DNA from: Rhizobium leguminosarum
GTDB taxonomy: Bacteria > Pseudomonadota > Alphaproteobacteria > Rhizobiales > Rhizobiaceae
Direction: 5' to 3'
Assembly: GCF_001652265.1 (NCBI RefSeq)
Contig: NZ_LWBS01000176.1
Location: 1 to 64,000, forward strand
Length of the DNA: 64,000 bases
The position numbers and the translations under genes are program-made. The notes beneath the pieces are model-generated. The model saw nothing but the letters and a program-made list of their open reading frames with translations, was not told the origin of the DNA and ran no database searches. Positions 1 through 9,176 of this stretch are shown in pieces. Every line of letters starts with the position of its first letter. Position 1 is the stretch's first letter.

Positions 1-326
1 CGCTTCGGCGTCAGCCGCTCCGACAGCAGCGCAAGCACCGGGTCGTGGCGCAGCGTGTCGTGATCATCGACATCCTCGTAGCCCAGCGCGATCGCCGCAA
101 TGCGCTGCCCGACCAGCGTGCGGGTGCTGTGGACCGTGCACTTGCGATCGCGGCCATCAACGAAGCAGGCGGCCACCCGGTCGAACAGCCCGATGGCCGC
201 ATCGACGTGACGAAGCAGCAGCGCACCGGCATCCGAGGTGATCGCGCCGCCGTCGAAACCAGCGACGACTTTGTGGCCGTCGAAGCCTTTAAATTCCAAC
301 TGCGCGGAGATACAGTCTGTTTGCAT
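1..326 (-). CDS. IS1380-family transposase, N-terminal part (runs off window)
   Basis: Reading on the minus strand from ATG at 326 gives an open frame of 108 codons to the window edge. It contains GGAITSDAGALLLRHVD, then LVGQRIAAIALGYEDVDDHD and LRHDPVLALL, which are characteristic N-terminal motifs of IS1380-family DDE transposases. A strong ribosome-binding site, AAGGAGG, lies just upstream (331-338). The protein would catalyse cut-and-paste movement of the element; the catalytic DDE core is not in the window, so activity cannot be judged. The opposite-strand and other-frame readings over this stretch are shadows of this gene. Confidence 0.85.
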   Translation of the reverse strand, partial: MQTDCISAQLEFKGFDGHKVVAGFDGGAITSDAGALLLRHVDAAIGLFDRVAACFVDGRDRKCTVHSTRTLVGQRIAAIALGYEDVDDHDTLRHDPVLALLSERLTPK

Positions 327-877: not shown

Positions 878-1216
878 TCACGCCAAGCGCAAATCGAGAA
901 GCGGGTGCAGCTTCTTGAGATTCGGGAGGGACTTTGCTTGCCAGGGATATTGGTTGGTGCCTTTGACGACGAGCAGGAGGTCGCCCATTTTTCGGGCTTC
1001 AATCGTCAGCTTAGCCAGCAGATTTATGCCTGAGGAGTTGAGGAATTCGAGGCCTGTGAGGTTGAACGTCACCTGTTTGTGCCCCTCATGGAGCAGGCCG
1101 AATACCAATGAGTAAATCGGCGCATAGGCATCCGGTCCCGCCAGCCGGAATACGCCATCGAAATACACCTCGTTTTTCTCAGCCCATACGCGGAAGTTTT
1201 CGTCGCTGATTTCCAT
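878..1216 (-). CDS. STAS-domain protein, slr1659 type (partner-switch antagonist)
   Basis: This 112-residue protein is one STAS-like domain of the slr1659 superfamily. The central beta-strand and loop LTGLEFLNSSGINLLAKL carry Ser61-Ser62 at the position where anti-sigma-factor antagonists of the SpoIIAA type are phosphorylated. By family logic it is the phosphorylatable switch protein: phosphorylated by a GHKL kinase and dephosphorylated by a PP2C phosphatase, binding its downstream target in one state only. It is the last gene of the six-gene operon, seven bases after the kinase-like gene at 1224-1784, so the two are probably made together and act as a pair. The direct target is unknown. No DNA-binding or membrane segment is present. 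Confidence 0.8.
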   Translation of the reverse strand: MEISDENFRVWAEKNEVYFDGVFRLAGPDAYAPIYSLVFGLLHEGHKQVTFNLTGLEFLNSSGINLLAKLTIEARKMGDLLLVVKGTNQYPWQAKSLPNLKKLHPLLDLRLA

Positions 1217-1223
1217 TCTTCGC

Positions 1224-1784
1224 TCACAGATTGGAGGAGGGCGGCATCGCCACAGCTGCAGTCGTCGTCAGTATGACACGATGGTCATTATTCTCTTCGA
1301 ATGCCCATGCCATTTTTGCGTCATAGTCGCTCAGAAGAGTAAGCAATCCCAAGCCCGAACCGCTCGCTGCCGATATGGCATTGGTTTCGATTTGCTCGAG
1401 AAGGAGTTCCCCGGGGTCCTTCGATTGGAGGCGATGCAGCAGTTGCTGAAAGCGAGATGACGTCACACCATCGATCGCGTTCTTCACCCTTATCAAAAAG
1501 GCTCCCTCGAATATGCCGGCCTCAATGAAGATCTCCCCAGGCTGTCGAAACTTAACGGCATTTTCGATCAGCTCATTGCTGAGATATCCGATGTCATGAT
1601 GCGCCTGCACGTAGTCTTTCCTTGACCGTGAATACGGCAGAGCCATGACTTCTGCTATAAAGTCCGCGGTCATTCCTGAGTGCTTCCATCCAAGCTGAAG
1701 TGGTCCATCGCTTAACGTGAGGCGAGTGCCCGAACCCAGACTTATGCCCGCCAGAGATTCGATGCCGTATACCGTTGGCGTCAT
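1224..1784 (-). CDS. Small GHKL ATPase/kinase, slr1658/SiaB-like
   Basis: The 186-residue protein is a single histidine-kinase-like ATPase domain of the slr1658 (DUF6272, SiaB-like) type. The N-box reads NELIENAVKF, with Glu71 and Mg-binding Asn75, and the ATP-lid glycines appear as SGSGLGLL (141-148). Both key elements are intact, so ATP binding and serine/threonine kinase activity are expected. It lies three bases downstream of the phosphatase gene and seven bases upstream of the STAS gene. The likely role is to phosphorylate the STAS protein at 878-1216, opposed by the SpoIIE phosphatase at 1788-4148. Compare the degenerate paralogue at 5314-5904 in the same operon. Confidence 0.8.
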   Translation of the reverse strand: MTPTVYGIESLAGISLGSGTRLTLSDGPLQLGWKHSGMTADFIAEVMALPYSRSRKDYVQAHHDIGYLSNELIENAVKFRQPGEIFIEAGIFEGAFLIRVKNAIDGVTSSRFQQLLHRLQSKDPGELLLEQIETNAISAASGSGLGLLTLLSDYDAKMAWAFEENNDHRVILTTTAAVAMPPSSNL

Positions 1785-1787
1785 GTC

Positions 1788-4148
1788 TCACCTATGTCGC
1801 ACTGCGAGAAGCGTGATGTCGTCGTAAATCTTCTGCGATCCGATGAAGAGCATCAATGTCGATACAATTCCGGAAACGACTTTCTCAGCGCTCTGATCCT
1901 TCAAGCGAAGTGCTTCGCGACACAGACGTTCGATGCCAAAGAGTTCTCCCGCGTCGTTTTCGGCTTCTGTTACGCCGTCCGTATGCAAAAGTATGAGGTC
2001 CCCTTTATCGAAGGCTATTTCACGGGTTTTAATGAAGGCAGAAATGTCGGCTTCCAACCCGATCGGTATACCCAGATCCATGGTATCTATGCGCTCGACC
2101 TCGCCGTTCGCCCGCACGACGACAACTTCCTCGTGTTGTCCCGACAGGATCATCTCTTTTCCGTCGTAGTCAAGGAACGCCAGGGTGAGATGCTTGTCGA
2201 TTTTAGTCCTCACGATATTTTTAAACAGGGCGCTGTTCAGGTCCGTGAGAAATTTGACTGCATCGGTGTTTCCGGCTTCCTGCAAGGCACGGGCGACGGA
2301 CTGAACCATCAACATCAACACGCCGCTTTCGAGCCCGTGTCCGGTGACGTCGCCGATGCCAATCTTCAATCGGCTTCCGTTCTTCAATACGTCGTAATAA
2401 TCGCCACCGACTTCTTCCGCCGGTCTCATATAGGCTGCGATCTCGAGGGCCTGAAATTCCTCAAGCTCCTGATGCAGCGGAAGAACCATGAGCTGGATTC
2501 TCTCGGCGACGGCGAGCTCTGTTCCGAGACGTCGATTTTCTCGCTGGAGCTGTGCGTTCAGTGTCGAAATCTCTTCCTTTGCATCTTCGATTTGAGCGGT
2601 TCGCTCTTCGACGAGCTGCTCGAGATTTTCGGTGTGATAGCTGATCTGTTCGGCCATCCGATTGAATGCTTCACCAGCCTCACCGACCTCGTCCTTGCTT
2701 GATATCGCCACCCTGACCGAATAATCCTTCGCCTGGATCCGTTTGGCGGCATCTGCAAGTGCACTGATTCCGCCCGTTATTCGTTTCGAAGCCGCAAATA
2801 CCGCGATGGTCACCACAAGCAGCGACAGCAAGATCGCCAGGATTTGGTAGAGCACGATCCGGTTCGTCGCCTCTGAAATTTTGGCCTGGGCTGCGTAGAG
2901 CGAGGCATCGATTTCTCGTTCGGGTACAACCACTCCAAGAGACATCGCCTCTTGCCGAACCGGGCCACTGAACCAGAGATTGGTCGAAGGGAGTTTCTTG
3001 ACGATAACGATATAGGGGACCTCGTTGCCGTCCTGCTGCAACAACAAATGTTGGATGCCCAGTTCGCGGTCGAGGGCCAGTTTTGCTATTGCAGGCTGCG
3101 AGCTTCCCTTCAGGGAGCGCTCCAGTCCGGTCACTCCGGTTCCGCTCGCATCGCTCGCAGAACGCAGACCGAGAGTTTTTTCGCCTGTGCTGTTGATCGC
3201 CACAACGTTTCCGTCGGACATTGCGAGAAATCCAAAGCCGGACTGGGCCACTTTCACATTTTCAACAGTCTGCGCGAGCTGGTCGAGTGTAATGTCCGCA
3301 CCAGCCGTTCCGGCGACATCCTTCCTGTCGGCTGTCCACAGTGGGTGAAAGAAGCTGACGATCAGCTTCCCGGTAATGGCATCCGTATAGGGCGCTGTCT
3401 GTGTTATATCGTCCGCGACCGGCCGCGTTTTCATATCCTTGGCCCAGCCCTGCCAGGACTCATAAAGTCCAGGAAAAAAGAAGTCCCAGAAATTGGCCTC
3501 GTTGTGGCCCGGATAAAGGCGATCGAAGGTCTGAGCCTGATCGGTGTAGGGCGCTGTTCTGAAGATTGGTCGCTCTTTCGATCCGATGTAATACATCTGC
3601 AGCTTTGAAGCGCCATGCTGCAGCAAGCTCGGCGCAACAAGGTCCAGAACCGCGCTCGTCTGGATATCGGTTTGGACGTCGGGTCTTGGCTCATGGTCTT
3701 GTCCGAGCAGGTAACTCCAGACGCTCACAACCGAGACGGAGCCTGGAGCGTTCTGAGACCACTTCCCCTTCTGGTCGTAGGAAAGGCTGACGCTGCCAGG
3801 AGAGGTGCGAGCGATCGCCGCGCCAACGTCGGAATTGCGCTCGGGATCGTCGATCTGCGCCTGGAGCACACCTGCCAAGGTGCCGACGTCGCTATGAACC
3901 TGCCGCAGGAGCAAACTCACCTGTGCCGCGGTCGAGTCAGCATATGTGCGTATATAATCCTGGCTTGCCGCTTGAAGACCTTGCCCGACTTCGAGGGTTG
4001 CGTCGCGCGACAGCCTCTGAACGTTCCAAAGCGCCAGCCCACCGCTTACCAGCAAGTCAAAGAGGACAGCGCCACCGACGACCAAGATGAACTTTGCCCG
4101 AAATGAGCCTAATCTTGCCGGTCTCTTCGATGATCTCCCGTCCATCAC
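1788..4148 (-). CDS. Membrane sensor with HAMP and SpoIIE/PP2C phosphatase (SiaA-like)
   Basis: At 786 residues the order is: short cytoplasmic N-terminus, TM1 (about 19-41), a large periplasmic region (about 45-415) with features of a double Cache sensor, TM2 (about 432-455), HAMP, a coiled coil with VEERTAQIEDAKEEI, and a C-terminal SpoIIE/PP2C domain (about 560-785). Metal-binding motifs are intact: EEVGGDYYDV, GIGDVTGHG, LLHTDGVTEAEN and YDDITLL. This is the architecture of Pseudomonas aeruginosa SiaA, which senses a periplasmic cue and dephosphorylates a switch protein. The start overlaps the preceding gene by four bases (ATGA), indicating translational coupling. The ligand is not predictable from the sequence. 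Confidence 0.88.
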   Translation of the reverse strand: MMDGRSSKRPARLGSFRAKFILVVGGAVLFDLLVSGGLALWNVQRLSRDATLEVGQGLQAASQDYIRTYADSTAAQVSLLLRQVHSDVGTLAGVLQAQIDDPERNSDVGAAIARTSPGSVSLSYDQKGKWSQNAPGSVSVVSVWSYLLGQDHEPRPDVQTDIQTSAVLDLVAPSLLQHGASKLQMYYIGSKERPIFRTAPYTDQAQTFDRLYPGHNEANFWDFFFPGLYESWQGWAKDMKTRPVADDITQTAPYTDAITGKLIVSFFHPLWTADRKDVAGTAGADITLDQLAQTVENVKVAQSGFGFLAMSDGNVVAINSTGEKTLGLRSASDASGTGVTGLERSLKGSSQPAIAKLALDRELGIQHLLLQQDGNEVPYIVIVKKLPSTNLWFSGPVRQEAMSLGVVVPEREIDASLYAAQAKISEATNRIVLYQILAILLSLLVVTIAVFAASKRITGGISALADAAKRIQAKDYSVRVAISSKDEVGEAGEAFNRMAEQISYHTENLEQLVEERTAQIEDAKEEISTLNAQLQRENRRLGTELAVAERIQLMVLPLHQELEEFQALEIAAYMRPAEEVGGDYYDVLKNGSRLKIGIGDVTGHGLESGVLMLMVQSVARALQEAGNTDAVKFLTDLNSALFKNIVRTKIDKHLTLAFLDYDGKEMILSGQHEEVVVVRANGEVERIDTMDLGIPIGLEADISAFIKTREIAFDKGDLILLHTDGVTEAENDAGELFGIERLCREALRLKDQSAEKVVSGIVSTLMLFIGSQKIYDDITLLAVRHR

Positions 4149-5317
4149 AGCGGCTTTCGGCCTGAAGCTGCCCAGATCGGCCAGCCTGCATAACCCTTGG
4201 GGTGAAGAGCAGCAAAGACATGATCTTTGAATCCCTGCCGGAACCTTCGAATGAAATCTGATGAGTCACCCCGCCGGACGGCCATCTCGCCCGCATAGAC
4301 ATTCTCCCAAGCTTCGATGATGTCTGCGAAGTCTTGGGGATCCCCGTCGAGGTTCGTTACCATAAAGCAATCGACCTTGATGCTATCGAACCCGGCGTCG
4401 GCAAGGAGATGGCGGCTTTTCGGCCCCATCTCGACATCCATGTCGAAGTGCTTGAACAGTTTGGCGACTTCCTCGTAAGTCCATTTTATGGATTCAGCAT
4501 GTGGCTCGCCCAGACAATGCGAATTTTTTTCGTTCGTGATGTAGACACGGCCGCCAGGTTTACAGATGCGGTAAAGCTCCCGCAGCAGCATCTCGGGACG
4601 GTCGAAAATCTGCAGCGAATGTCGGCAGGTCACAAAGTCGAATTGATTGTCTCGCAGCAGCATTTGGGAGGCGTCGCCATAGGTGTATTCGATTCCCTGC
4701 AGATCGAAGTCGGCAGCGACCCTGCGTGCATATTCGAGGCTGCGCACGGAATGATCCAACGCAACAAGGCGTGCCGGTTTAAATTCTCGTTGAACCAAGG
4801 CCGCGAAGTCACCAATTCCGCAACAGATATCCGCGATGACAAGACCGCTGCGCAAACCGTGGCGAGGCAACAGTTCGCGTTCGTGCCTCCATGTCATTTT
4901 CGTCTGGGTGCGGAGAATGGGAATGAAAGTCTCATCCTCGACAAAGCTCTGGCCGGGATAAAATGCCGAATCGTAGACTTCAACCGACAAGTTTGGTTGT
5001 GCTGCCGCCAGCGTTTGGAATAACGAGGTCGACCATGCCACCACGCTCGACGTGATAATGACAATCTTCCGATCCGCCCTGGTCCGGCAGCATGCCGTGA
5101 GGATATCGGACAGGGTGGCGAAGGCCGTCATGTTGATGTGCGTCAGACGTTTGACATTGAGGTAAACGACCCCGCTGTATTTTTCCAAACTTTGCTGCAC
5201 TAGCTTGAGGGCATCGGCAATGTCAGCGGCGCTTTCGGGTCGCATCTTGCCAGACAGCAACAGCTCCTGATTTGTCGGATCAAAATGAACAGTGAAGGGC
5301 AGGGGGAGCAGGCTCAT
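4145..5317 (-). CDS. STAS domain fused to a class I SAM methyltransferase
   Basis: The 390-residue protein has an N-terminal STAS-like domain (about 8-115) and a Rossmann methyltransferase (about 145-300). The STAS loop reads RLTHINMTAFATL, with Thr64 where switch proteins carry the phosphorylated Ser/Thr. The methyltransferase motif I is VIADICCGIGDFA (DICCGIG at 163-169), followed by VALDHSVRSLEYAR, YGDASQML and LYRICKPGGRVYITNE. A further about 90 residues with no recognised domain follow. Fusion to STAS inside a partner-switching operon suggests methyl transfer that is controlled by phosphorylation, or a STAS antagonist localised by the enzyme. The substrate is unknown. The gene overlaps both neighbours by four bases. 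Confidence 0.8.
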   Translation of the reverse strand: MSLLPLPFTVHFDPTNQELLLSGKMRPESAADIADALKLVQQSLEKYSGVVYLNVKRLTHINMTAFATLSDILTACCRTRADRKIVIITSSVVAWSTSLFQTLAAAQPNLSVEVYDSAFYPGQSFVEDETFIPILRTQTKMTWRHERELLPRHGLRSGLVIADICCGIGDFAALVQREFKPARLVALDHSVRSLEYARRVAADFDLQGIEYTYGDASQMLLRDNQFDFVTCRHSLQIFDRPEMLLRELYRICKPGGRVYITNEKNSHCLGEPHAESIKWTYEEVAKLFKHFDMDVEMGPKSRHLLADAGFDSIKVDCFMVTNLDGDPQDFADIIEAWENVYAGEMAVRRGDSSDFIRRFRQGFKDHVFAALHPKGYAGWPIWAASGRKPL

Positions 5318-5904
5318 CGGAAGTCCTCTGTCGAGGGGAAATCCGCAATGATTTGTACCCCTTGTCCGCCGTCTTTCTCAATCCGGATCGTGGCGCGGAA
5401 TATTGCCGCCAAATCGCTGAGCAAAATCGTCCCGTCGGACTTCATCACCAAGTATCCAGAACCGGCGCCGGGGACCGGTTGGCCTTCACTTGATCTTGCA
5501 TTGGTGTGCTTTCGGCCAAATGCTTCCTCGCCGGGAAAGACAATTCTCAGCCGATTGACTGTCGCGCTCCGATAGAGACTGAAACTTATCCTTCCTGGCT
5601 CGCTCGTTGAACGGAAAGCAAGTTCGATGAGCTCATTCGTCGCGACGGAGAGAAAATTGGAATATCGAGCGGGATCGCTGTGACCTTGGCCGAGAATGTC
5701 TGAGAGGTATTCTGTAATCCTGTCGCAAAACTGCCATCGGGATTTGAACGTCGCCACGTTCAGTTCCAGCGATACCATCGGCGCAAATGCATGGTCATCG
5801 AAGCTAGCTGCTTCCTGGTTCAATATACCCTCCCTTCTTTTGCCTGGGGCGTCAGGTTGATGCATGCGATCGCTATAAAGGCACGGCGAAAATCGGTTGT
5901 TCAC
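5314..5904 (-). CDS. Degenerate GHKL ATPase-like protein (possible pseudokinase)
   Basis: This 196-residue protein resembles the small kinase at 1224-1784. The segment SVATNELIELAFRST aligns with the N-box NELIENAVKF, but the Mg-binding Asn is Leu95, and the lid glycines are reduced to GAGSGYLVM. It therefore probably cannot hydrolyse ATP in the usual way. The start at 5904 overlaps the stop of the upstream GGDEF-EAL gene (ATGA), and its own stop overlaps the STAS-methyltransferase start, so the three proteins are coupled. A plausible role is as a binding partner for the STAS domain of the methyltransferase. The assignment rests on motif alignment by eye. Confidence 0.55.
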   Translation of the reverse strand: MNNRFSPCLYSDRMHQPDAPGKRREGILNQEAASFDDHAFAPMVSLELNVATFKSRWQFCDRITEYLSDILGQGHSDPARYSNFLSVATNELIELAFRSTSEPGRISFSLYRSATVNRLRIVFPGEEAFGRKHTNARSSEGQPVPGAGSGYLVMKSDGTILLSDLAAIFRATIRIEKDGGQGVQIIADFPSTEDFR

Positions 5905-7556
5905 TGGGGCAGCGTTGGGCTTACGGAAGTTTCCGCCCGGGTGATGAACTCGCCAATCGCCTGGACCGGAAGCGGCCTGCTAATCAAATAGCCTTGAAGT
6001 CTGTCGCAGCCCACACTGCGCAACCATTCCGCCTGACCCGGCGTCTCTACCCCTTCGGCTGTCACCTGCATGTCGAGGTCATGTGCGAGGTTAACGATGC
6101 AGCGGACGATTGCCTGGCCTTTCAGATCGCTTTCGAGGTCGGTGATAAAATATTTGTCGATTTTGATCGTGTCGAACGGGAATGTCTTCAGATAGCTCAG
6201 GGAAGAATATTCGGTGCCGAAATCATCAAGCGAGATTCGTATCCCTAGCACGTTGAGAGTATTCAGGGTGTCGATATTGTTGACGGTCCGCTCAAGGAGC
6301 ACGCTTTCGGTTATCTCAAGCTCCAGACGTTCTGGCGGCAACCCGATCAAGTCTAGCGTATGGGATACCCGATCAGTGAGGCCGCTTGTCAAGAATTCAG
6401 CCGCGGACAAATTGACCGCGACGATGTAGTTCTGCGGCCACTTCATTGCCTCGCGACATGCCTGCTCCAAAACCCATGCGCCTATTTCCGGCATCATTCC
6501 GTCGGCCTCGGCCATCGGAATAAATGCCGCTGGTGGGATTTTTCCAAGTAGAGGGTGGTTCCATCTGAGCAATGCTTCGAAGCCGACAATGCTGCCGCCC
6601 TCGGCGATGGGCTGGTACTCTACAGAGAATTGTTGTTGGACCAGAGCCATGCGAAGGCTGCGGCGCAGCAGTTCGCGTTGTTCCAGCAACTCGAGCATTG
6701 AGGGATCAAAGGGTCTCGCGCGACCGCGCCCGTCCTTCTTCGCGGCGTAGAGTGCGACGTCGGACGCTTTCATCAGTTGCTCCGGACTTGTACCGTCCGG
6801 TGGAGCAGCTGATATGCCGATGCTGGCACCGACAAATAGCGCGATGCCATCTATCGTGAAGGGCTTTTTGAATGCATCAACCAAAGCTTCTGCTAGCTGG
6901 TGTCCTTTGGCGGGATGTCCCGGGCCTCTTGATATGACGGTGAATTCGTCACCCGCCAGTCGATAGGCTCTGTCGTCGCTGGTAAGGCACTCTTGAATGC
7001 GGCCTGCAGCGAGCTGAAGAAGCTTGTCGCCGGCCGGATGCCCGAGCGTGTCGTTAACGGGTTTGAAATCGTCAAGATCGAGTTGCATCAGGGACAGAGT
7101 CTCGTTCGAGCCTGCGGTCTCCCGTAACAACACAGCGAGGTCCTCGCTGAACTGGCGTCGGTTCGGCAATCCAGTGAGCGGATCGTGGGTGGCCAGATGC
7201 AAAAGGGTTGCGCGCTCATCGTCGGCAGATTCCTCGGACCGAACCACTGCAAACAGATCTCCGATCCGATAGATCGTCAGTCCGTGCGACGCTGGCGTGC
7301 CAAGATCCCCCGATATTTGCAAGGGTTGGGGACTGTCACCCAAAGAACGGAGGGCGAGTGTAATCGCCGATTTGTCCAATTCTGGAAAATGCTCCCAAAA
7401 CGACGCTGCTGGTTTGACAGAAGCAGGCAGCTCATTGCCCAGCAAATTCTCGACGGGATTGAAATCGCGGTCAAAGAACAAAAGCCGATCGATCGAGCTA
7501 GAAGCTTTTGCCTCTGTTTGTCTGAGCGTCGAGGCGGCCGCATGAATTTTCTGCAT
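5901..7556 (-). CDS. GGDEF-EAL c-di-GMP turnover protein
   Basis: The first gene of the operon encodes about 551 residues: an N-terminal region without a clear domain (1-115), a GGDEF domain (about 118-285) and an EAL domain (about 295-545). The signature is RLAGDEF (AGDEF at 201-205), a variant compatible with diguanylate cyclase activity; the product-inhibition RxxD site is lost (TSDD at 192-195). The EAL half has GFEALLRWNHP, EITESVL, DDFGTEYSSLSYL, IKID and TAEGVET, so phosphodiesterase ligands look present, although the loop Gly is Glu. The ATG at 7556 is chosen because GGGAGG lies nine bases upstream; ATG at 7580 has no such site. No transmembrane segment is seen, so it is probably the cytoplasmic output of the switch. 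Confidence 0.88.
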   Translation of the reverse strand: MQKIHAAASTLRQTEAKASSSIDRLLFFDRDFNPVENLLGNELPASVKPAASFWEHFPELDKSAITLALRSLGDSPQPLQISGDLGTPASHGLTIYRIGDLFAVVRSEESADDERATLLHLATHDPLTGLPNRRQFSEDLAVLLRETAGSNETLSLMQLDLDDFKPVNDTLGHPAGDKLLQLAAGRIQECLTSDDRAYRLAGDEFTVISRGPGHPAKGHQLAEALVDAFKKPFTIDGIALFVGASIGISAAPPDGTSPEQLMKASDVALYAAKKDGRGRARPFDPSMLELLEQRELLRRSLRMALVQQQFSVEYQPIAEGGSIVGFEALLRWNHPLLGKIPPAAFIPMAEADGMMPEIGAWVLEQACREAMKWPQNYIVAVNLSAAEFLTSGLTDRVSHTLDLIGLPPERLELEITESVLLERTVNNIDTLNTLNVLGIRISLDDFGTEYSSLSYLKTFPFDTIKIDKYFITDLESDLKGQAIVRCIVNLAHDLDMQVTAEGVETPGQAEWLRSVGCDRLQGYLISRPLPVQAIGEFITRAETSVSPTLPQ

Positions 7557-7593
7557 GTCCGAGGCCCTCCCTAGTCGCATGTCATAACCAGAT

Positions 7594-7780: not shown

Positions 7781-8659
7781 TCACGCGCCCGATCCGCACT
7801 CCGTCATGAACCAGTCGATGAAGCGGCGCACCGGCTTTCTCGCCCAGCTGTTCGATATGACGTAATAGCCCTGGTTCTCTGCCGTCGCGATGTCGGAAAG
7901 CACCAGCAGATCGCCGCGCTCAATCTCCCGGCGGAACACCTCGACGGGGCAGAGCGCCACACCGTGGCCGGCGATCACGGCCGTCGCCAGCATGTTGAAA
8001 TCCTGGAATATCGGGCCTCGAAGCGGCTCCGGCGCTTTCTGGCCGGCCTTGCGGAACCATTCCTTCCAGCCGTCGATGGATTCGTCGTGCAGCAGATCGG
8101 TGCCGCCGAGCGAGACGTCGCCGATCGTCCAGTTGCGTTTGGTAATGTAGTGGCGGCTGGCGGCTGGCTGATTGCGACGGGAGAAGAGCAGGCGGCTTTC
8201 CCTGCCGCCGCTCAGATCCTCGCCCATGGTGATCAGCACGTCGAGGCTCTCGTCGTCGAAGCGTTCTTCGGCGCGGGCATAGACGATCCTGACGTCGAGA
8301 TCGGGGTTGCTTTCCTTGAACGCGGGCAGGGCGGGGACGAGCCAGCGCGATGCGATCGAGGGAATGCAGCCGACGGTGATGACGCGCATGTCGTGATCAC
8401 GCCGCAGGTTGCCGGTCGCATACGCGATCGCCGCCAGCGATCCGGAGACGGCTCGGTAATATTCGCTGCCGGCTGCGGTCAACGCAACACCGCGGCCTGA
8501 TTTCTGTAACAGCTTGCGGCCGAGCCAGGTTTCCAGATGTTTGATCTGATGGCTGATCGCCGCATGGGTGACGTGCAGCTCGTCGCCCGCTTTCGAAAGG
8601 CTCATCAGGCGGGCCGTGGCTTCGAAAGCGCGCAAGGCATTCAGCGGCGGCAACTGCAT
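7781..8659 (-). CDS. LysR-family regulator (GcvA-like), divergent from ectC
   Basis: The 292-residue protein has an N-terminal winged helix-turn-helix (LNALRAFEATARLMSLSKAG through VTHAAISHQIKHLE) and a substrate-binding effector domain (about 90-290), the standard LysR layout and length. It is transcribed away from the ectoine synthase gene, with 130 bases between the two starts. That intergenic stretch carries paired GATGA/TCATC inverted repeats which could be its binding sites. The divergent arrangement suggests that it controls ectC and itself; the inducer is unknown. Confidence 0.85.
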   Translation of the reverse strand: MQLPPLNALRAFEATARLMSLSKAGDELHVTHAAISHQIKHLETWLGRKLLQKSGRGVALTAAGSEYYRAVSGSLAAIAYATGNLRRDHDMRVITVGCIPSIASRWLVPALPAFKESNPDLDVRIVYARAEERFDDESLDVLITMGEDLSGGRESRLLFSRRNQPAASRHYITKRNWTIGDVSLGGTDLLHDESIDGWKEWFRKAGQKAPEPLRGPIFQDFNMLATAVIAGHGVALCPVEVFRREIERGDLLVLSDIATAENQGYYVISNSWARKPVRRFIDWFMTECGSGA

Positions 8660-8756: not shown

Positions 8757-8789
8757 TACATCTTCAATAATTTGTCAGGAGAATCGGCG

Positions 8790-9176
8790 ATGTTCGTCAG
8801 AAATCTGAAGGAGGTGGAACTCACCGAGCGTTTCGTCGACTGGGGCAACGGCACGAGCCACCGTCTGCTGACCAAAGACGACGGCATGGGCTTTACGGTG
8901 TGCCATACCATCGTTCGCGCCAATAGCGAGGCCCTGCTTCAGTACCGCAATCATCTGGAGGCCTGCTATTGCATCAAGGGTGAGGGCGAAGTGGAGGATA
9001 TGGACGGCAATGTCTTTCCAATCCGCGCCGGCGACATCTATGTGCTCGACAAGCACGACCGGCATTATCTGCGCGGCGGCAAGGATCATGATCTCGTTCT
9101 CGTCAGCATCTTCAACCCGCCGCTGACGGGCACCGAACGGCACGACCTGAACAACAAGAGCGGGTCGCAATACTGA
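8790..9176 (+). CDS. ectC: Ectoine synthase EctC, solitary
   Basis: The 128-residue cupin-fold protein matches EctC along its length: [20 protein letters not shown] at the start, then [47 protein letters not shown] and SIFNPPLTG. EctC cyclises N-gamma-acetyl-diaminobutyrate to ectoine. ATG at 8790 is chosen because AGGAGA precedes it and this is the normal EctC N-terminus; the frame is open further upstream. No ectA, ectB or ectD is nearby, so substrate must come from elsewhere in the genome, from outside the cell, or the enzyme has another substrate. Solitary ectC genes are known in bacteria that do not make ectoine by themselves. Confidence 0.92.

What the first reader, a model, noticed from the sequence alone, without database searches (positions are those of the whole stretch)
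878..7556. Six-gene sia-like partner-switching operon coupling c-di-GMP, a phosphatase, two GHKL proteins and a methyltransferase
Seen: one strand, four-base overlaps or gaps under eight bases throughout, with GGDEF-EAL, degenerate GHKL, STAS-methyltransferase, periplasmic sensor-SpoIIE phosphatase, intact GHKL and STAS genes. Known: in Pseudomonas aeruginosa SiaA (sensor-phosphatase), SiaB (kinase), SiaC (switch protein) and SiaD (diguanylate cyclase) form a partner switch controlling biofilm. Inferred: this is a rhizobial relative with two extra layers, a pseudokinase and a methyl-transfer output, and the c-di-GMP protein as first gene instead of last. To my knowledge this exact set is not characterised.
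Basis: partly seen in the sequence, partly recalled or inferred. Interest (0 to 1): 0.8.

Follow-up and report, generated by a model that had tools for sequence, protein, structure and literature searches.

The report
Rhizobial bgr partner-switch signalling operon
These six genes are the Rhizobium version of the bgr switch, a protein relay already described in Sinorhizobium that links an outside signal to a second messenger; comparison with relatives suggests that the relay is older than its messenger enzyme and may be used for other jobs elsewhere.

Summary
In detail: six same-strand genes (878-7556), nearly back to back, with the named domains. The interpretation needs correcting: this is the orthologue of Sinorhizobium meliloti bgrRSTUWV (Baena et al. 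2019; only citing passages read), not a sia relative. S. meliloti 4H41 shows one SpoIIE phosphatase, inside this operon. Of 92 loci, 88 keep all six genes in order.

Switch residues are strict: BgrV LNSSGIN 92/92; BgrW ATP boxes kept; BgrS lost its N-box Asn in 93/93 but is predicted to fold like SpoIIAB/RsbW/SiaB.

New here: (1) a core, STUWV, exists without BgrR; in all ten copies found so, a divergent coiled-coil PP2C gene sits upstream; five lie beside type VI secretion genes, against 0 of 98 BgrR loci. (2) BgrR loci form one clade (34/34). (3) BgrT residue 64 is Thr in 88/90 BgrR rows, Ile/Leu/Val in 10/10 others. (4) The window's draft genome and 13 others of 22 BgrT-positive genomes lack a close BgsA, the known target enzyme. 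Function is inferred, not shown.

The parts
5901..7556 (-). bgrR orthologue: N-terminal part without Pfam match, then GGDEF (AGDEF) and EAL domains
   Evidence: GGDEF 148 bits, EAL 246 bits; AGDEF 89/89 readable rows, EAL catalytic residues (positions recalled) unchanged 90/90, but the loop-6 Gly (recalled) is Glu or another residue at 457. Start 7556 chosen for its upstream GGAGGG; longest ORF 5901-7580.
5314..5904 (-). bgrS orthologue: degenerate GHKL (pseudokinase); true start probably 5865 or further in
4145..5317 (-). bgrT orthologue: STAS domain (about residues 8-114) fused to class I SAM methyltransferase (about 117-320)
1788..4148 (-). bgrU orthologue: dCache-like periplasmic sensor, HAMP, SpoIIE/PP2C phosphatase
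   Evidence: SpoIIE 126 bits, HAMP 47 bits over cut-off, dCache_1 30 bits below its cut-off of 45; metal-binding Asp positions (recalled) kept in 92 of 92 readable rows; only SpoIIE match in the window's draft genome.
1224..1784 (-). bgrW orthologue: slr1658-superfamily GHKL kinase
   Evidence: NF047703 166 bits against cut-off 100; N-box N70, E71, E74, N75, K78, F79 and SGLG kept 92/92.
878..1216 (-). bgrV orthologue: slr1659-superfamily STAS switch protein, LNSSGIN phosphosite motif at residues 59-65
   Evidence: NF047705 120 bits against cut-off 100; LNSSGIN 92/92 and in the 9 BgrR-less stretches that reach the gene.

Best explanation
The six genes are the orthologue of bgrRSTUWV in the R. 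leguminosarum complex, a membrane-sensing partner switch. Inferred course: a periplasmic signal on BgrU's dCache-like domain activates its PP2C domain, which dephosphorylates BgrV at Ser61/62; BgrW (ATP kinase) re-phosphorylates it; the phosphorylation state of BgrV sets the activity of the c-di-GMP enzyme BgrR. That U/W/V-to-R link is reported for S. meliloti (known to me second-hand) and fits the sequence here. BgrS and BgrT are a duplicated, diverged kinase/STAS pair: BgrS has lost residues for Mg-ATP binding and probably holds BgrT through its STAS domain; BgrT carries a methyltransferase of unknown substrate as a second, older output. BgrR was added once to a pre-existing STUWV core that elsewhere goes with a coiled-coil PP2C.
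For: Species complex: BgrT 93-96% identical to R. leguminosarum, johnstonii, laguerreae and relatives. Identity: the one SpoIIE match in the S. meliloti 4H41 draft genome lies in this operon, as does its one slr1658 kinase over cut-off; six genes in the order implied by the name R-STUWV. Synteny 88/92. Conserved switch residues. Pseudokinase by sequence and predicted fold. STAS of BgrT homologous to BgrV. Core without BgrR in 10 copies; BgrR clade 34/34, support 1.0. Mirror-tree partial correlations, 64 of 89 sequences after thinning: S with T-STAS 0.28, S with W 0.01, S with V -0.35, W with V 0.23, R with V 0.22.
Against: The founding paper could not be read, its locus tags are unknown to me, and the held library prints none of the six tags I recalled. 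No complex was predicted and no interface seen. Mirror-tree values are small and permutations do not remove shared ancestry; T-STAS also correlates with W (0.20), V (0.21) and R (0.18), so pairing is not exclusive. The BgrT model is poor outside the STAS part (mean pLDDT 62). The direction 'BgrR gained' rests on rooting with one unnamed family. BgrR absence was judged in the fetched stretches only.
Confidence: 0.8

Rival explanations
1. A true member of the P. aeruginosa SiaABCD family with two genes added.
Against: SiaA 114 of 700, SiaB 21 of 85, SiaD 97 of 290 bits; no SiaC/DUF1987 match for gene 6. BgrR has no SiaD-like stalk by eye.
Confidence: 0.03
2. In this strain, as in S. meliloti, the operon serves to switch on mixed-linkage beta-glucan through BgsA.
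For: All 8 genomes with a BgsA match of 67% identity or more among 199 have BgrT; bgsA lies within the fetched stretch of 6 of 92 loci.
Against: The window's genome has only a 33% match and 14 of 22 BgrT genomes lack a close BgsA; so does R. johnstonii 3841, whose operon contig is titled a complete sequence. The window's genome is a 93% complete draft.
Confidence: 0.07
3. The methyltransferase BgrT, not c-di-GMP, is the main output and BgrR is an accessory in some rhizobia.
For: BgrT residues 109-390 are the most conserved stretches measured among BgrR loci (82-84% mean pairwise identity, against 55% for its STAS, 75% BgrU, 71% BgrV, 66% BgrR, 57% BgrW, 40% BgrS), and BgrT is kept where BgrR is absent (those copies were found through BgrT or slr1658, so a BgrT-free core would have been missed by the first route).
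Against: Published work ties the S. meliloti switch to BgrR. No substrate known; conservation alone does not say output.
Confidence: 0.3
4. BgrR here is mainly a phosphodiesterase, so the switch lowers c-di-GMP.
For: EAL catalytic residues unchanged in 90/90; GGDEF changed to AGDEF, and the RxxD inhibitory site (recalled) not kept in the window.
Against: S. meliloti BgrR has the same AGDEF and is called a diguanylate cyclase in citing papers. Loop 6 of the EAL domain is altered at residue 457.
Confidence: 0.3

Closest known systems
S. meliloti BgrRSTUWV (Baena et al. 2019, doi 10.1111/1462-2920.14624; not read, cited in PMC7647112 and PMC8457831)
   Same: Six genes in the same order in S. meliloti Ak57; BgrT about 69% identical to the window's.
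   Different: A close match of the known target enzyme BgsA is missing from the window's draft genome; the S. meliloti copy is on a megaplasmid (the Rm41 record names it pSYMB).
P. aeruginosa SiaABCD
   Same: Works alike: PP2C + GHKL + STAS-fold switch protein controlling a c-di-GMP enzyme (read: abstract and Discussion of PMC7647112; passages of PMC8457831).
   Different: Other protein families by curated cut-offs; no methyltransferase and no second GHKL in the four-gene set; SiaC is phosphorylated on Thr68 and binds the SiaD stalk.
Cyanobacterial slr1658/slr1659 pair (NCBIfam NF047703/NF047705)
   Same: BgrW and BgrV belong to these superfamilies; the pair is adjacent in Kovacikia minuta.
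   Different: No match of BgrR, BgrT or BgrU and only a chance-level one of BgrS in that 14.5-kb locus; of the four papers listed I saw only the listing.
P. aeruginosa HptB-HsbR-HsbA/HsbD
   Same: STAS protein whose phosphorylation steers a diguanylate cyclase (as described in PMC7647112 and PMC8457831).
   Different: Not compared by sequence here.

Membership tests
bgrRSTUWV operon | Six genes R-S-T-U-W-V in this order on one strand | tested here: met
   Which published letter belongs to which gene is inferred from the roles of U, W, V and R and from the order in the name.
bgrRSTUWV operon | Phosphatase BgrU is the SpoIIE gene of S. meliloti orthologous to gene 4 | tested here: met
   One SpoIIE match in the S. 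meliloti 4H41 draft genome, inside the orthologous operon. Indirect: locus tags of the paper not seen.
bgrRSTUWV operon | Known target bgsA in the same genome (a property reported for S. meliloti, not part of the gene set) | tested here: inconclusive
   No close BgsA in the window's 93%-complete draft genome, best match 33%; other orthologous operons also lack it, 10 of 20 named-locus genomes.
bgrRSTUWV operon | BgrV phosphorylation by BgrW and dephosphorylation by BgrU controls BgrR | not testable with these tools
   Residues for it are conserved.
SiaABCD | SiaB kinase model NF038262 | tested here: not met
   21.4 bits, cut-off 85.
SiaABCD | SiaC domain (PF09345) | tested here: not met
   Gene 6 has no match; gene 3 STAS 15.5 bits, cut-off 24.5.
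SiaABCD | SiaA and SiaD equivalog models | tested here: not met
   114.5 of 700 and 97.4 of 290 bits.
slr1658 / slr1659 superfamilies | Score over NCBIfam cut-off 100 | tested here: met
   BgrW 166.3, BgrV 120.5 bits.
slr1658 superfamily (BgrS) | Score over cut-off 100 | tested here: not met
   20.2 bits; 36 bits in a distant relative; distant homology only.
GHKL anti-sigma-type kinase fold (BgrS) | Fold like SpoIIAB/RsbW | tested here: met

The most novel reading that the evidence does not exclude
BgrSTUWV is a portable, c-di-GMP-independent signalling core whose conserved business is a pseudokinase-held STAS-methyltransferase. Its partner slot is exchangeable: a coiled-coil PP2C, beside type VI secretion genes in some genomes, or, in one rhizobial clade, the c-di-GMP enzyme BgrR, whose arrival went with a Thr at the phosphoacceptor position of BgrT, wiring the methyltransferase into the phosphorylation cycle.
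Probability: 0.35. Interest if true: 0.68.

Novelty: new member of a known kind. Interest (0 to 1): 0.42.

Why it matters
It moves a described Sinorhizobium polysaccharide switch into R. leguminosarum relatives in which its known target enzyme was not found, so its real output there is open. It also points to a pseudokinase plus STAS-methyltransferase as a second, older output of a partner switch, and to the same core near type VI secretion genes: both are directly testable by gene deletion in laboratory rhizobia.

Tried and rejected
SiaABCD membership: rejected on curated cut-offs. Thr64 of the STAS-methyltransferase as a general phosphosite: rejected, hydrophobic in 10 of 10 BgrR-less copies and Met in 2 of 90 BgrR rows. 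Beta-glucan control in this strain: not supported. Amino-acid-sensing dCache: the sensor's PDB matches include PctA, but the amino-acid motif (recalled) is not evident by eye; not pursued. Promoter and terminator scan: counts at or below those of shuffles. SiaD-like stalk: a coiled-coil stretch is shared by the diguanylate cyclase beside slr1658/slr1659 in genome G431 and the coiled-coil PP2C of L193 (E 9e-7 for that one comparison), and may be a STAS docking site; coiled coils match easily and BgrR lacks it by eye, so left as an idea. The BgrT fold search listed no STAS fold among its 50 rows, which the methyltransferase filled: not evidence against STAS.

Literature: searches. Several lists were capped (20 of 35, 25 of 37, 25 of 342). 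By title and abstract start, none of the listed papers joined partner switching with this methyltransferase or with type VI secretion; subscription papers are not held. Papers: PMC7647112 outline, abstract, Discussion and passages; PMC8457831, PMC9495663, PMC8546604, PMC7997180, PMC8256260 passages only; Baena et al. nothing.

The type VI queries were taken from the BgrR-less loci themselves, which favours hits there. In the tree I used 42 chosen loci; L195 and the two pieces of G867 (contig ends) were left out beforehand.
Full report
What is there. Six genes lie on the minus strand between 7556 and 878 with junctions of -4, -4, -4, +3 and +7 bases. Pfam and NCBIfam give GGDEF-EAL; an ORF without Pfam match; a protein with a methyltransferase; dCache-like/HAMP/SpoIIE; a GHKL protein over the cut-off of the slr1658 superfamily (166 bits, cut-off 100); and a STAS protein over that of slr1659 (120 bits, cut-off 100). 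The start of the second gene at GTG 5904 is doubtful: in relatives the gap before it is mostly tens of bases.

It is a known operon. The Discussion of PMC7647112 and passages of PMC8457831 report, citing Baena et al. 2019, that in S. meliloti BgrU/BgrW set the phosphorylation of BgrV and so control the diguanylate cyclase BgrR, in a set named BgrSTUWV plus BgrR, for mixed-linkage beta-glucan. I could not open Baena et al.. That our operon is its orthologue rests on this: S. meliloti Ak57 has the same six genes in order; the S. meliloti 4H41 draft genome shows exactly one SpoIIE match, inside the operon, and one slr1658 protein over the cut-off, next to it. The label SMb20447 for bgrR is recalled; no paper of the held library prints it or the five next tags.

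Conservation. Of 92 loci (9 plasmid stretches, the 80 best of 269 confirmed genome-contig places, 3 from an unnamed alphaproteobacterial family), 88 have all six genes in the same order and strand, one is cut by a contig end, and three lack the first gene. Flanks differ: sugar transport, bcsA, curli, uxuA and others. BgrT is patchy: 22 of 199 genomes of the window's family, 6 of 398 of the phylum. Of the 7 of 396 phylum genomes with slr1659 over the cut-off, 6 have BgrT; of 385 genomes of the class, the 4 with slr1658 over the cut-off all have it. The exception, G431, has a diguanylate cyclase, slr1658, slr1659, a binding-protein-like ORF (by eye) and a SpoIIE gene in a row, a sia-like layout from bgr-type parts.

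Switch residues (motif names and roles recalled; rows include the window). BgrV LNSSGIN: 92/92. BgrW N-box (N70, E71, E74, N75, K78, F79) and SGLG: 92/92. BgrU PP2C aspartates: unchanged in all 92 readable rows. BgrS keeps NE..E but has lost the following Asn in 93/93, and its GLG region is not conserved. BgrR: AGDEF in 89/89 readable rows; EAL catalytic residues unchanged in 90/90, though the loop-6 residue 457 varies.

A core without BgrR. Seven of the 22 family genomes and the three distant ones show no BgrR in the fetched stretch. In all ten a divergently transcribed PP2C gene with a coiled-coil start lies upstream of bgrS instead, 54-58% identical between the seven and L119, with PP2C motifs kept. 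No such gene was found at over 35% identity in the 89 BgrR loci. Five of the ten lie beside TssF/TssG or Hcp/VgrG/ClpV genes; none of 98 BgrR loci does by the same search, whose queries came from the BgrR-less loci. The two G867 pieces, the three distant loci and the 5.5-kb contig L195 gave no type VI hit. On a BgrT+BgrU tree of 42 chosen loci the 34 BgrR loci are one clade, support 1.0, inside the others when rooted on the distant family. BgrT residue 64 is Thr in 88 of 90 BgrR rows (Met in two) and Ile, Leu or Val in ten of ten others. Because BgrR loci are one clade, that is one event, not many.

Target. The beta-glucan synthase BgsA of S. meliloti (identified by its position and HlyD-family neighbour; its orthologues fit) has matches of 67% or more in 8 of 199 family genomes; all 8 have BgrT, and bgsA lies inside the fetched stretch of 6 of 92 loci. 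But 14 of 22 BgrT genomes lack one, as do 10 of 20 named-locus genomes including R. johnstonii 3841, and the window's draft genome has only a 33% match. So the window's operon probably acts on something else, perhaps cellulose (inference).

Verdict. Shown by sequence: gene set, synteny, families, residue loss, the BgrR-less variant with its neighbours. Predicted: BgrS fold. Reported by others and known to me second-hand: the U/W/V switch on BgrR. Inferred: signal sensing, BgrS-BgrT pairing, methyltransferase output, order of gain. The window's operon is a new member of a known kind; the interest lies in the older core.

Noticed in passing
window 3-326 (minus): Start of a DDE transposase (PF13701, 94 bits) cut by the window's left end, just downstream of the operon.
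   Followed up: partly
window 8784-9176 (plus): Small cupin protein matching ectoine synthase (PF06339, 138 bits) beside a LysR gene (7781-8659).
   Followed up: no
Two stretches of the cyclase's coiled coil align with the coiled coil of the PP2C of BgrR-less loci.
   Followed up: partly
L192, L193, L194, L196, L197: Bgr core without BgrR next to type VI secretion genes; L193 and L196 also have a protein kinase-like gene, L193 and L194 another methyltransferase, and L192 a further SpoIIE protein with a cyclic-nucleotide-binding domain.
   Followed up: partly
L012 / L014: The S. meliloti Ak57 record carrying the operon is titled pSymA, while the Rm41 copy is on pSYMB; the Ak57 label may be wrong.
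   Followed up: no
L003, L012, L016: bgrS is annotated 'ubiquinone biosynthesis methyltransferase UbiE' in public records, though it is a GHKL-like protein; the name may have leaked from its neighbour.
   Followed up: partly
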